64,000 nt of DNA, taken from the NCBI GenBank assembly GCA_017302895.1, contig JAFLBV010000001.1:1302001-1366000 (forward strand), read 5' to 3'. The notes under the pieces were generated by a model. It saw nothing but the letters and a program-made list of their open reading frames with translations. It was not told the DNA's origin and did no database searches. Below, piece by piece: positions 29,813 to 36,026 of the stretch (positions within the stretch are counted from its first letter, which is position 1; every line of letters begins with the position of its first letter). Made by a program: the position numbers and the translations under genes. Source of the DNA: Ignavibacteria bacterium. GTDB lineage: Bacteria; Bacteroidota; Ignavibacteria; Ignavibacteriales; Ignavibacteriaceae.

Positions 29813-29881
29813 TTTTCAATTTTTTCGTTTTAATAAATCGTGAAAAGATATTAATTTAGTGCGTTAAATAATAAATTTAAT

Positions 29882-30082
29882 AAGCGTCGTATAGCTACCT
29901 CGTGCGAACTGCGAGGCATGTGCTGATTTCAATTTTTGTAATCAGTTCTGTATTACTTAATATCTGTCGGTAATTATCACAGGTAAGGATGGGTCATTCT
30001 TTGGATTACGAGTGCGAGGGTTTTGTAAGAAATTTTAGACTCTTAAATCTGACTGCACGGCTCTCGAAAGTATACGACGCTT
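29882..30082 (+). ncRNA. Retron msr-msd RNA
   Basis: a1 (AAGCGTCGTATA, 29882-29893) and a2 (TATACGACGCTT, 30071-30082) are perfect 12-bp inverted repeats. The base after a1 is G29894 in the context AGC, the place where retron reverse transcriptases prime from the 2'-OH of a guanosine. The msr follows with hairpins CCTCG...CGAGG (29898-29916) and CTGATT...AATCAG (29923-29945). The msd should lie in about 29950-30070, with a possible stem using CGAGTGC near 30009 and GCAC...CTCG near 30054-30066. The reverse transcriptase gene starts 16 nt after a2. Exact msd limits are not visible. Confidence 0.85.
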
Positions 30083-30098
30083 TTAAATCAAGGGACAT

Positions 30099-31250
30099 AT
30101 GCTCACTGCAATTCTTGATGGAATAAGGAAAAATTATACTAAAGCCACTTTTTACACTTATAGACAGATCGTTGTTAATAAGAAAAAAGGGGGCAAAAGA
30201 ATAATAAGTATTCCAGGTCTACTCCTTCGGAAATCACAACGGTCGCTTCTTCCGTTTTTCCAACAACTGCGCACACACAGTTGTGCCCATGGCTTTGTCG
30301 TTGGAAAAAGCATAATCACTCATGCAAGTTTACATCTTGCAAAAGAATCAATCCTCACTCTCGATATTCAAGATTTTTTCGGAAGCATCACATCTGAACA
30401 CTTAGAGAAAATTTTTCGTTCTCATGGTGTTCAAAAAAGCGAAGACTTAGAACTATTAATAAAGTTGACGACAATTAATGGGAAGCTCCCTCAGGGAGCC
30501 CCTACCAGCCCTATACTGTCAAATGCAGTCGTATTTGAAATGGATTTCGAACTTAACGAATGGGCAACTAAGAACAATTTAATTTATAGCAGATACGCTG
30601 ATGATATGGTTTTTTCGTCAGAGACCAGGACTATTGAAAAAACATGTATTGATGAAGTATCTCAGATCACTCAGAAATTTGGATTTAAATTAAATAATTC
30701 AAAATCCAGGATTATGCCTCGAGGCAAAAGGCAAGTGGTCACGGGTTTAGTTGTTAACACAAAGTTGAATGTTAAGAGGGAGTATTTGCGAAATACAAGT
30801 GCCATTCTCCATAATATCTCAAATAACCCATTCAGCGCATTAAGTCAGGTCTCAAGGGGATCGGTTTTTGCGACATATCAGAGTTATGAAAAGGAATACT
30901 TAAGTAGAAATTTGTCTTTGAGTTCTTTTCATTATTTGATCCGGAACCAAAAACAACAACAAAAATTAATAAATCCAACCAAAATCAGGCTACACCGAAA
31001 AAGTCACTTTTCAAACTACCCCATATTCCGTTTGCTTCTTTTACTTCAAGGAGTTAACGGGAGGATTTCTTTTATTTCTTCGGTTATTGGTGAAAATCAA
31101 ATATCTGTACAAAAACTACGGAACCAATTTAAAGAAATTGAAAAAGAGCTGTTTGGTAATTACTCAATCAACTGGTCAACGAATACAACGCGTCTTTATA
31201 AAATTATTCTGAGAGAATGTCCACAACTTCGTACTCGAATAAAAGGATAG
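30099..31250 (+). CDS. Retron reverse transcriptase
   Basis: A 383-residue group II-like reverse transcriptase that copies the msd of its own RNA. Motifs in order: RIISIPGLLLRKSQRSLLPFF, HGFVVGKSIITHASLHL (retron region with NAxxH-like ...THASLH), catalytic Asp89 in LTLDIQDFFGS, GKLPQGAPTSPILSN, YADD at 166-169 in YSRYADDMVF, and VTGLVVN at ~214-220, the retron-specific VTG motif. The C-terminal thumb contains LQGVNGRISFISSVIGE, similar to the RGKINFIGxVRG found in several retron RTs. ATG follows AAGGGACAT. The preceding non-coding RNA is intact. The gene is AT-rich relative to its neighbours. Its stop is 8 nt from the stop of the convergent helicase gene. Confidence 0.95.
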   Translation: MLTAILDGIRKNYTKATFYTYRQIVVNKKKGGKRIISIPGLLLRKSQRSLLPFFQQLRTHSCAHGFVVGKSIITHASLHLAKESILTLDIQDFFGSITSEHLEKIFRSHGVQKSEDLELLIKLTTINGKLPQGAPTSPILSNAVVFEMDFELNEWATKNNLIYSRYADDMVFSSETRTIEKTCIDEVSQITQKFGFKLNNSKSRIMPRGKRQVVTGLVVNTKLNVKREYLRNTSAILHNISNNPFSALSQVSRGSVFATYQSYEKEYLSRNLSLSSFHYLIRNQKQQQKLINPTKIRLHRKSHFSNYPIFRLLLLLQGVNGRISFISSVIGENQISVQKLRNQFKEIEKELFGNYSINWSTNTTRLYKIILRECPQLRTRIKG

Positions 31251-31258
31251 AAAATACA

Positions 31259-33805
31259 TTATCTGGGTTGTTGTATTTTACATTCCAATGACCCGTTTGG
31301 TTGTGGTTTGGGGACATTCCAATTCTCAAATTTCATGACATTTTTTTGAGTTGGCACCGAGCGCGTCTGTTTGCATTGAGGAAAGTTTGTGCAACCAAGA
31401 AATATCGAATTATCTTTATTGTTTATCCGTGTTACAAGTATCCCATTACAATCTGGTGAAGGGCAGGACTGATAATTGACATAGATTCCTTGCATTTCCT
31501 CTATGAATGGTGACAGATTATTCACAGTATAAAGAACATATACTATATTTTTGGTTCGAGTAAGCGCTACATAAAATAGTCGTCTTTCTTCGGCGTTCAT
31601 GATTTCATCGTTTTGTGCTAACACAAGATTCAGAACCGGATCATCCTCTTTTGAGCAAGGGAAGGTATTCCCGTTCACATTCCAAAGAATTGTGAAATCA
31701 GCTTCTGCACCTTTTGCCGCATGCACAGTCCTGTACGCAATATCATATTTATGATATTTCCTAAAAACAGGTTGTATAAAATGCTGAATATCTGTTTTGA
31801 ATCTGCCGAGGATTAATATTGAAGTCTTGTTGTCACCCCTCGTTTTGTGTATTTCATCTAGGATATAATTCAGGGGATCATTAACTGGCAAAGAAGAACC
31901 AGGTTTGGAATAAAAATAGTCCGGATAAACTGACACAAGCTTTATTGAACCATTTATCTGCGTCTTTGTGGATGTAATTTTTTTCTTGATCTGAGACGGA
32001 TTTTTCATTACAAAATTTGAGGAAGCATCAGCAATTTCCTGCGAGAACCTGAATGTAGTTTCGAGTCTGGTTATCTCTGCTTTACCGAAATAGTTCTCAA
32101 AGTTAGTCATCATGCTAACATCCACACCAGCGAATCGGTATATTGATTGCCAATCATCTCCGACGCCGAATAATTTAATGCTTGGATTGTTTTGTAGAAT
32201 TGCCTTGATAAGTCTCATTTGTCCAACGGAAAGATCCTGAAACTCATCAATAAGTATATAATCAATTGCTAAGTCGGGTTTTTCCTCAATGATAAAGTCG
32301 GTGGCTTTATTCACCATATCGGAAAAATCAATCAGATTATTGATCCGTAAATATTCTTCATATCCTATCAACAGGGGTTCTATCAGGTTGACAAATACCT
32401 CATATCTTCTTCCCAATTTATTCTTTGAGATCTTTTCGCGTAAATCGTCTACTGAAAGGGAACATGACCTGATTAGAGTAATAAAAGTTGATATGAGGGT
32501 TATCATATTCTTGAAAGAACTTGACTCTTTCAATCTAATGTAAACTTCTTCCGGATTCTTCAGCTTGATACCATACCTTGATAAACTTTTTCCAAGTTCC
32601 TTAAGAAGAGTACCATCCTTTACTTGAAAAGAAAATGTCTGAATTAGTAAGGTACCATTTGCTTTATGAAGTTTTAGTTTCCAATTCCTTTGTTCGTTAT
32701 ACAGTTGACTCGCCGATTTTCGTCCCTGTCCTGAAAAAAATGGGGGTACATCCCCACGCTCATTAATTAAAGCGAAATGCTCAATCCAGATGCCATAATC
32801 TTTTAGATAAAAATCAGGTTTGTAATTCTCATACTGGGTACGGTCATTGGTGGTGTAACACTTCTCATACTCGTATTTCACACCATTCAAATAGAGAAAA
32901 TTAGCAATGATAATTTCCTCATTACTACGGTAAATTTTGCCGTCAAGGGCTAATTCTTTTTGAGTTGCTCGAATTTGCTCAGATTCTTTTCTGTATTCGT
33001 CAGTTGTTTTTGGAAACGGAAGGTGCACCATCAGGAACTCAACAAATTCTCCCTGATAATTCAGATCACTAACATTTTTATTGATCTCGGTTTCGAAGAA
33101 CTTTCCGAATTGTGAAGAATCTTTTTGTTCAGGGGCCATTTCGGAAACTTTGGAAATATTTCCTGCTAATTCCCGAATGACATTTAGTCCAAATGAACTT
33201 ATAGTCCTGACTGCTATCTCTTTTCCAGTTATCGCTTTTAAACGCTGTCTCATTTCATCAACAGCGACCTTGGTAAAAGAAAGTGCAAGAATTCTAGAAG
33301 GGTTAACCCCCAACCTCTCTGTCAAATAAACAATTTTTGCAACAAGGGTACTTGTTTTTCCAGTACCAGCCCCCGCGACCACCAAGTGTCTGAACTCATC
33401 AATAATCACAGCCTCGCACTGCTTCTCTGTGAGAGGAAGACCGTTAACTCTTTGAAAAAGAGCGGTGCATAATTCGGTTTCGTTTTGGATGAAAGTCCTA
33501 TTAAAAACACTTCGAGTTTGATCCAAGGCAGCAAATTCATTCTTGTATCTATCTATCAGGTCAATATTTATTCTTTTGACAGGAAATATCTTGAGGATAG
33601 GCGGCGTCCAAGGCGGGTCGATTGATTTAGCTTTGAGTTCAATTAAAGTACGAAAAGTCCAGTACCTAAGCCCCTGAGTTATCTTTTCTAATTCCGAAAA
33701 AAAACCTCTTATCGGAGCAATACTTTTGCTTGTCTTTTTAGAGAAATAGAACCAAACTCCAATGTACAATATTGACAAAATGAGTGCGGAAATGTAAAAG
33801 ATCAT
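31259..33805 (-). CDS. HelD-like (helicase IV) UvrD-family helicase with PD-(D/E)XK-like insertion and zinc ribbon
   Basis: An 848-residue superfamily 1 helicase. A predicted membrane helix (1-20, FYISALILSILYIGVWFYF) precedes a HelD-like N-terminal region. Walker A is VAGAGTGKTS (Lys150), Walker B is ILIDEFQDL (~518), then GVGDDWQSIYRFAG, LETTFRFSQEIA, RTVHAAKGAEADF and FYVALTRTKN. Between the first helicase motifs and motif II (~295-400) lies an inserted nuclease-like domain: SNEEIIIANFLYLNGVKYEYE, then YKPDFYLKDYGIWIEHFAL. This is a PD...(E)xH-like version of the PD-(D/E)XK core. A topoisomerase-type zinc ribbon ends the protein (CPSPDCNG ... CTNFPQCKQTR). It converges with the retron RT gene. 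It may be a general repair helicase or a defence partner. Confidence 0.85.
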   Translation of the reverse strand: MIFYISALILSILYIGVWFYFSKKTSKSIAPIRGFFSELEKITQGLRYWTFRTLIELKAKSIDPPWTPPILKIFPVKRINIDLIDRYKNEFAALDQTRSVFNRTFIQNETELCTALFQRVNGLPLTEKQCEAVIIDEFRHLVVAGAGTGKTSTLVAKIVYLTERLGVNPSRILALSFTKVAVDEMRQRLKAITGKEIAVRTISSFGLNVIRELAGNISKVSEMAPEQKDSSQFGKFFETEINKNVSDLNYQGEFVEFLMVHLPFPKTTDEYRKESEQIRATQKELALDGKIYRSNEEIIIANFLYLNGVKYEYEKCYTTNDRTQYENYKPDFYLKDYGIWIEHFALINERGDVPPFFSGQGRKSASQLYNEQRNWKLKLHKANGTLLIQTFSFQVKDGTLLKELGKSLSRYGIKLKNPEEVYIRLKESSSFKNMITLISTFITLIRSCSLSVDDLREKISKNKLGRRYEVFVNLIEPLLIGYEEYLRINNLIDFSDMVNKATDFIIEEKPDLAIDYILIDEFQDLSVGQMRLIKAILQNNPSIKLFGVGDDWQSIYRFAGVDVSMMTNFENYFGKAEITRLETTFRFSQEIADASSNFVMKNPSQIKKKITSTKTQINGSIKLVSVYPDYFYSKPGSSLPVNDPLNYILDEIHKTRGDNKTSILILGRFKTDIQHFIQPVFRKYHKYDIAYRTVHAAKGAEADFTILWNVNGNTFPCSKEDDPVLNLVLAQNDEIMNAEERRLFYVALTRTKNIVYVLYTVNNLSPFIEEMQGIYVNYQSCPSPDCNGILVTRINNKDNSIFLGCTNFPQCKQTRSVPTQKNVMKFENWNVPKPQPNGSLECKIQQPR

Positions 33806-34090
33806 TTAAAGTAGCCAACTAAAATAGATATTTTAAAGAATTGTAAATTTTATATATAATTTAAGCAATTCGATCAAAATGTCAAAAATCTTGTCATAAC
33901 CCGTGAGGTCGAACTGGAATTTTTCAATTTTATTTTATTTCAGTCTCAAATTTTTTCCTGTTTTCTCGGATTTCCTAATTCTGGAACTCTGTCGGTTTAT
34001 TTACATTACCATTTTTGCTTCAAAAGCCTTATATTCTACACTAAAAGAATAGATTTTTTATTCCTCGTTTTAGAACAATTGCATGACCCT

Positions 34091-35403: not shown

Positions 35404-35590
35404 AGTTGAAATAGTTCTTGTGGCGACATATGTGTAGAGACCCGGTGACAAATCTTCAGAGAGCCCTTGCGGCGACATATGGGTAGAATCCTGCCGACCT
35501 GTTCACAGAGAGCCCTTGCGGCGACATGTGGGTAGAAACCTGCCGACCCGTTCGAAGAGAGCCCTTGTGGCGACATATGTGTAGAGATTC
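35404..35590 (-). repeat. ~50-bp interspersed repeat, cluster A (four copies, minus orientation)
   Basis: Four copies of the core (CTTG(T/C)GGCGACAT(A/G)TG(T/G)GTAGA on the plus strand, starting about 35413, 35465, 35515 and 35564). Their spacing is about 50 bp. Linkers such as GACC(T/C)GTTC.(A/C)AGAGAG are partly conserved too. Read on the minus strand they are TCTACCCATATGTCGCC-GCAAGGGC, the same unit as at 22.7 and 35.7 kb. Confidence 0.85.
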
Positions 35591-35729: not shown

Positions 35730-36026
35730 TTCTATCCATATGTCGCCCTAAAGGGCTTTCCTGGGGTTTGTCATTAGATTCTATCCATATGTCGCCCCTA
35801 AAGGGCTTTCTTGTGGTTTGTCGCCGGATTCTATCCATATGTCGCCCTAAAGGGCCATCTTGGGGTTGGTCGCTCTATTCTATCCATATGCCACCCCTGC
35901 GGGGTTGTGATTAACTAATAACTGATAATTCATAAATCATAACTGGCATTCTATCCATATGTCGCCCAGAGGGCTTTCTTGGGGTTTTGACGCCGAATTC
36001 TATCCATATTTCGCCCTAAAGGGCTG
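35730..36026 (+). repeat. ~50-bp interspersed repeat, cluster B (six copies, plus orientation)
   Basis: Copies start near 35731, 35780, 35830, 35879, 35949 and 35999. All share TTCTATCCATAT(G/T)TCGCCC or a close variant, followed by a palindrome: GCCCTAAAGGGC in three copies, GCCCCTAAAGGGC, CCCAGAGGG, and CCCCTGCGGGG in the fourth copy. The linkers are ~20 nt (e.g. TTTCTTGGGGTTTG) and vary. One copy is 70 rather than 50 nt from its neighbour because of a low-complexity insert. Confidence 0.88.

What the first reader, a model, noticed from the sequence alone, without database searches (positions are those of the whole stretch)
29882..31250. Complete retron: msr-msd RNA with perfect a1/a2 repeat plus a VTG/YADD reverse transcriptase
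Seen: 12-bp perfect a1/a2 repeats 177 nt apart, the branch G in AGC directly after a1, two short msr hairpins, and an RT with retron-type motifs starting 16 nt after a2. Established: retrons are anti-phage toxin/antitoxin-like systems using RT, msDNA and an effector. Inference: the element is intact and functional.
Basis: partly seen in the sequence, partly recalled or inferred. Interest (0 to 1): 0.8.

Follow-up and report, generated by a model that had tools for sequence, protein, structure and literature searches.

The report
Stand-alone retron with no visible effector
This is a genuine but incomplete-looking retron, a bacterial reverse transcriptase next to its own template RNA, in a 4-kb acquired insert beside a probably unrelated DNA helicase-nuclease gene; the toxic 'effector' that usually makes retrons into phage defences is not recognisable, so it is a fairly ordinary new member of a known class.

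Summary
In detail: perfect 12-bp a1/a2 repeats (29882-29893 / 30071-30082, 177 nt apart; 15 of 17 positions when extended), two msr-like hairpins, and a 383-aa reverse transcriptase starting 16 nt after a2. The repeat is unlikely by chance (1 of 400 shuffles). The RT is a retron RT: PADLOC's best matches are all retron RTs, and the closest solved structures are Eco2/Ec67 and other retrons. 'Complete, intact and functional' is not supported. No effector domain is fused to the RT, although its best-matching families (types XI, XII, I-C) carry one, and no same-strand partner lies beside it. The proposed msd stem is no more stable than shuffled sequence. The RT's NAxxH motif reads HASLH. New: retron plus a convergent UvrD-type helicase with an embedded nuclease-like domain (31259-33805) form a ~4.3-kb low-GC insert that three congeners lack. 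That helicase family is widespread and had no RT beside it in 17 neighbourhoods, so it is probably an independent gene rather than the effector. Best reading: an effector-less or trans-acting retron of a deep, unclassified lineage. Side finding: a recurrent DnaB-ATPase/ncRNA/RT arrangement in relatives.

The parts
29877..29893 (+). a1 repeat (perfect core 29882-29893, AAGCGTCGTATA)
29894..29894 (+). candidate branching guanosine, directly after a1 (by analogy, untested)
   Evidence: analogy with validated retrons
29898..29916 (+). msr hairpin 1 (CCUCGU/GCGAGG, 6 bp, 7-nt loop)
29917..29950 (+). msr hairpin 2 (core CUGAUU/AAUCAG)
29955..30070 (+). presumed msd (template part); predicted hairpin 30015-30066, interrupted stem with wobbles, not more stable than shuffles
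30071..30082 (+). a2 repeat (TATACGACGCTT; extended to 30087)
30099..31250 (+). retron reverse transcriptase, 383 aa, no fused effector; insert (about 252-307) and C-terminal tail (355-383) of low model confidence
31259..33805 (-). UvrD/helicase-IV-type helicase, 848 aa, with nuclease-like insert (conserved E297, E314, D331, E342, K376) and C-terminal zinc ribbon; convergent neighbour, 8 bp from the RT stop; shares the insert, not shown to be functionally linked
29813..34060 (.). approximate extent of the insert carrying retron and helicase; empty site in three congeners; no clear target duplication found

Best explanation
A genuine stand-alone retron (ncRNA plus RT) of a deep, unclassified lineage, acquired in a 4-kb insert. 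Mechanism, mostly inferred: the leader transcript pairs a1 with a2, exposing the G after a1; the RT binds the msr hairpins and copies the part 5' of a2 into cDNA joined 2'-5' to that G, giving an RT-msDNA-RNA complex. In known retrons this complex restrains an effector until phage infection disturbs it. Here the effector is not next to the RT: it has been lost or replaced, or lies elsewhere. The convergent helicase-nuclease is most likely an independent mobile defence or DNA-repair gene. Shown: repeats, hairpins, RT family and predicted fold, absence of a fused domain, empty sites. Inferred: msDNA production, branching, any defence role.
For: RT: PADLOC's 25 best matches are all retron RT models, led by RT-Protease_XI (2e-74) and RT-TIR_XII (3e-71), over the RT part only. 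NCBIfam retron models hit at 1e-55 to 2e-61, below their cut-offs. PDB sequence search is led by Ec67 and Ec86, and the 18 best Foldseek matches are all retron RTs, 9i2f Eco2 first at 8e-21. Leader: 12-bp repeat, 1 of 400 shuffles; msr z -2.0. No effector: the model is confident to about residue 352, then a short weak tail, and alignment shows many relatives continuing into further domains where this RT stops. Insert: the MscS and PEGA/propeller genes on either side are adjacent in three congeners without retron or helicase; GC is 36-39% against 41-49% in most windows outside. Helicase independent: no RT ORF in 17 neighbourhoods of full-length homologues, and no such helicase in the RT neighbourhoods fetched.
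Against: The msd part has no stem above chance, in RNA or DNA, so the template function rests on a1/a2 and msr alone. No close homologue (best about 40% over the core) exists to test covariation or purifying selection. HASLH in place of NAxxH is a departure, though asparagine substitutions occur in two of 16 validated retrons (PMC6868368).
Confidence: 0.65

Rival explanations
1. The convergent helicase-nuclease is the retron's effector or accessory: the msDNA complex restrains or guides it, and infection frees it to unwind and cut DNA. This would be a new retron type.
For: Both genes lie in one insert absent from three congeners, are 8 bp apart tail to tail, and share low GC. The helicase has a conserved nuclease-like insert, a relative sits near defence-like genes (L157), and known retrons have captured other defence genes (Retron-Sda1, PMC12548924).
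Against: Opposite strand, so no shared transcript, unlike usual retron operons. The family is common and had no RT in 17 of 17 neighbourhoods. None of the retron loci fetched carries such a helicase. In Retron-Sda1 itself the captured defence genes worked without the retron.
Confidence: 0.13
2. A decaying or non-functional retron remnant: the effector part was lost and the msd has degenerated, leaving an open RT frame.
For: No effector domain, where best-matching families have one; weak msd stem and unstructured cDNA; HASLH motif; RT ends 8 bp before the convergent gene.
Against: The RT frame and catalytic motifs are intact, the model is confident, and a1/a2 is perfect. Other stand-alone RTs occur in related lineages, so lack of a fused domain need not be loss. 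Several related retrons also have weak stems.
Confidence: 0.15
3. The RT's own insert and tail (residues 252-307 and 355-383) are a small effector or effector-binding part peculiar to this lineage.
For: About 40 residues more than relatives between core and thumb; no domain match there.
Against: Low model confidence in both stretches, no fold, no homologue of the C-terminal part in the loci searched.
Confidence: 0.05

Closest known systems
Retron types XI (RT-protease), XII (RT-TIR) and I-C (RT-Toprim, e.g. Eco2/Ec67)
   Same: Best-matching RT models and structure; ncRNA directly upstream of the RT with a2 just before the start codon.
   Different: No fused effector; longer a1-a2 spacing (177 nt against about 86-140 in most related-clade leaders measured); tree position unresolved, basal with weak support.
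Retron-Sda1 and Retron-Bth1 (PMC12548924)
   Same: Retrons lacking their expected effector; Sda1 lies beside a defence module that works without it.
   Different: Type III-A1-like RT with HipA/DUF3037 (Sda1), or a group II intron in the RT gene (Bth1); no helicase.
DNA helicase IV / UvrD family; Gabija GajB (for the neighbouring gene)
   Same: The neighbouring helicase matches helicase IV (1e-104) and GajB models (1e-43).
   Different: Below the curated cut-off for helicase IV; embedded nuclease-like insert and zinc ribbon; no GajA partner gene beside it.

Membership tests
Retron | RT of the retron group with YADD and VTG | tested here: met
Retron | Region X NAxxH | tested here: inconclusive
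   HASLH; the first residue also varies in a few relatives and in two of 16 validated retrons (PMC6868368)
Retron | a1/a2 complementary ends of 8-30 nt flanking the ncRNA, next to the RT | tested here: met
Retron | msr with 1-3 stable hairpins | tested here: met
   two hairpins, z -2.0
Retron | msd folding into a long stem (10-50 bp) | tested here: inconclusive
   interrupted stem predicted, not above shuffles; cDNA barely folds; several relatives equally weak
Retron | branched msDNA product | not testable with these tools
   needs experiment
Retron as a tripartite defence system | effector fused or in the operon | tested here: not met
Retron type XI / XII / I-C | protease, TIR or Toprim domain C-terminal to the RT | tested here: not met
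   match to these models ends before the effector part; model
Gabija (GajB) for the neighbouring helicase | GajA nuclease gene beside it | tested here: not met
   neighbours are the RT and a PEGA/propeller gene

The most novel reading that the evidence does not exclude
A new retron type whose effector is the convergent helicase-nuclease: a retron controlling a UvrD-type helicase with an embedded nuclease.
Probability: 0.12. Interest if true: 0.65.

Novelty: new member of a known kind. Interest (0 to 1): 0.35.

Why it matters
It adds a deep-branching stand-alone retron without a recognisable effector, a kind for which it is open whether the retron acts alone, acts in trans or is decaying. The insert and its matching empty sites give a natural set of related genomes with and without it. 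Relatives found on the way show a recurrent DnaB-like ATPase/ncRNA/RT arrangement that looks like an undescribed retron type.

Tried and rejected
MscS channel gene upstream as effector: rejected, it is conserved in congeners without the retron. Rfam: nothing at gathering thresholds, and only a chance-level hit when relaxed. Hidden effector downstream in another frame: rejected, the convergent helicase gene ends 8 bp after the RT stop. Target duplications or terminal repeats of the insert: none convincing. Close relatives of the RT in viral contigs: none by single-protein scan, only distant ones by profile (not analysed further). Helicase in viral contigs: none. Firm assignment to type XI: rejected, the careful tree puts the RT at the base between two groups with 88/73 support, unlike the quick tree. 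An effector elsewhere in the genome was not looked for. Of 400 shuffles one did reach the observed repeat, so chance alone is not excluded by the repeat, only by repeat and RT together.

Full report
Observation. One of 400 dinucleotide shuffles of the leader gives such a repeat; extended, it matches at 15 of 17 positions. Two short hairpins follow a1 and fold better than shuffles (z -2.0). The rest is weaker: without a1/a2 the 177 nt fold no better than shuffles (z -0.2), the msd half has z -0.3, and the complementary DNA barely folds (z +1.0). As a control I folded the leaders of other RT loci with candidate repeats: the median z is -2.5, but several in the related clade are near -1 or 0, so a weak stem does not exclude a retron.

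The reverse transcriptase. PADLOC's 25 best families are all retron RTs, the best being type XI and XII fusions, matched over the RT part only. NCBIfam retron models hit below cut-off, and Pfam gives RVT_1. In the PDB the closest sequences are Ec67 and Ec86. An AlphaFold model (mean pLDDT 85) is confident for core and thumb and has Eco2/Ec67 as its best structural match; the first 18 matches are all retron RTs. YADD and VTG are present, and region X reads HASLH. The protein stops where many relatives continue into further domains; about 40 extra residues lie between core and thumb. It is the only such RT found in its genome, and the nearest relatives reach about 40% identity over the core. A quick tree places it among the type XI/XII/I-C-like RTs (SH-aLRT 97), but a careful tree places it at the base with weak support (88/73): a deep, unclassified lineage.

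The neighbourhood. Upstream is an MscS-type channel gene, downstream a convergent 848-aa helicase, then a PEGA/propeller gene. In three congeners the channel and propeller genes are adjacent, with about 90-130 unaligned bp between them in two; the window has 4.3 kb there. The insert has 36-39% GC, against 41-49% in most flanking windows. No clear target duplication is visible. So retron and helicase lie in one acquired segment, gained by one event or two (which, is not shown).

The helicase. It is a UvrD/helicase-IV type protein with an insert matching a Holliday junction resolvase family and conserved acidic and lysine residues of PD-(D/E)XK kind (the nuclease reading is inference). Full-length homologues at 33-40% identity occur in 13 other genomes of a 395-genome phylum sample and on many plasmids. 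None of 17 neighbourhoods examined encodes an RT; one of them is a 3.7-kb contig whose flanks say little. None of the fetched RT loci carries such a helicase. It is therefore probably an independent gene.

Mechanism. By established retron knowledge (PMC6868368; PMC12405507), the RT would bind msr, prime at the G after a1 and copy the region before a2. Whether the product is made, and what it controls, is not shown. Retron-Sda1, whose neighbouring defence genes work without it (PMC12548924), is a close precedent for a retron beside unrelated defence genes.

Side result. Five stand-alone RTs forming one clade (96/88) each have a DnaB_C-only ATPase gene directly upstream on the same strand, with an ncRNA whose msr part is visibly conserved in the four that were aligned. 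A search of open papers for retron with DnaB gave nothing relevant, which is weak evidence because the classification papers of subscription or non-commercial licence are not held.

Noticed in passing
L156:7577-9932, L270:3678-6010, L125:5653-7882, L082:5590-7945, L097:2496-4996: DnaB_C-only ATPase gene, then ncRNA with a1/a2 and a conserved msr, then stand-alone RT, in five members of one RT clade (Bacteroidota bins, a bin labelled Rhizobium, and the window's own family and class): candidate undescribed retron type.
   Followed up: partly
window 35457-35585 and 35730-36025: About 49-bp tandem repeats; the second array contains CCATATGTCGCCCTAAAGGGCT, dispersed in clusters at several genome sites (34 matches with up to one mismatch, none for the reversed control).
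   Followed up: partly
L155:2482-8630: Stand-alone retron RT (same order as the window's genome) followed on the same strand by a DUF2225 gene and a 1444-aa DEAD helicase gene.
   Followed up: partly
L269:6053-10337 and L092:6821-9355: Retron RTs with long C-terminal extensions; L092 matches the 'HisKin-conflict' family (PF22561), and L269 is followed by genes that look receiver-like by eye.
   Followed up: partly
L094:6878-8892: Stand-alone retron RT overlapping a downstream FRG-domain gene on the same strand.
   Followed up: no
L157:8721-17677: Homologue of the window's helicase near a methyltransferase-like gene and what look like DarT/DarG genes (by eye).
   Followed up: no
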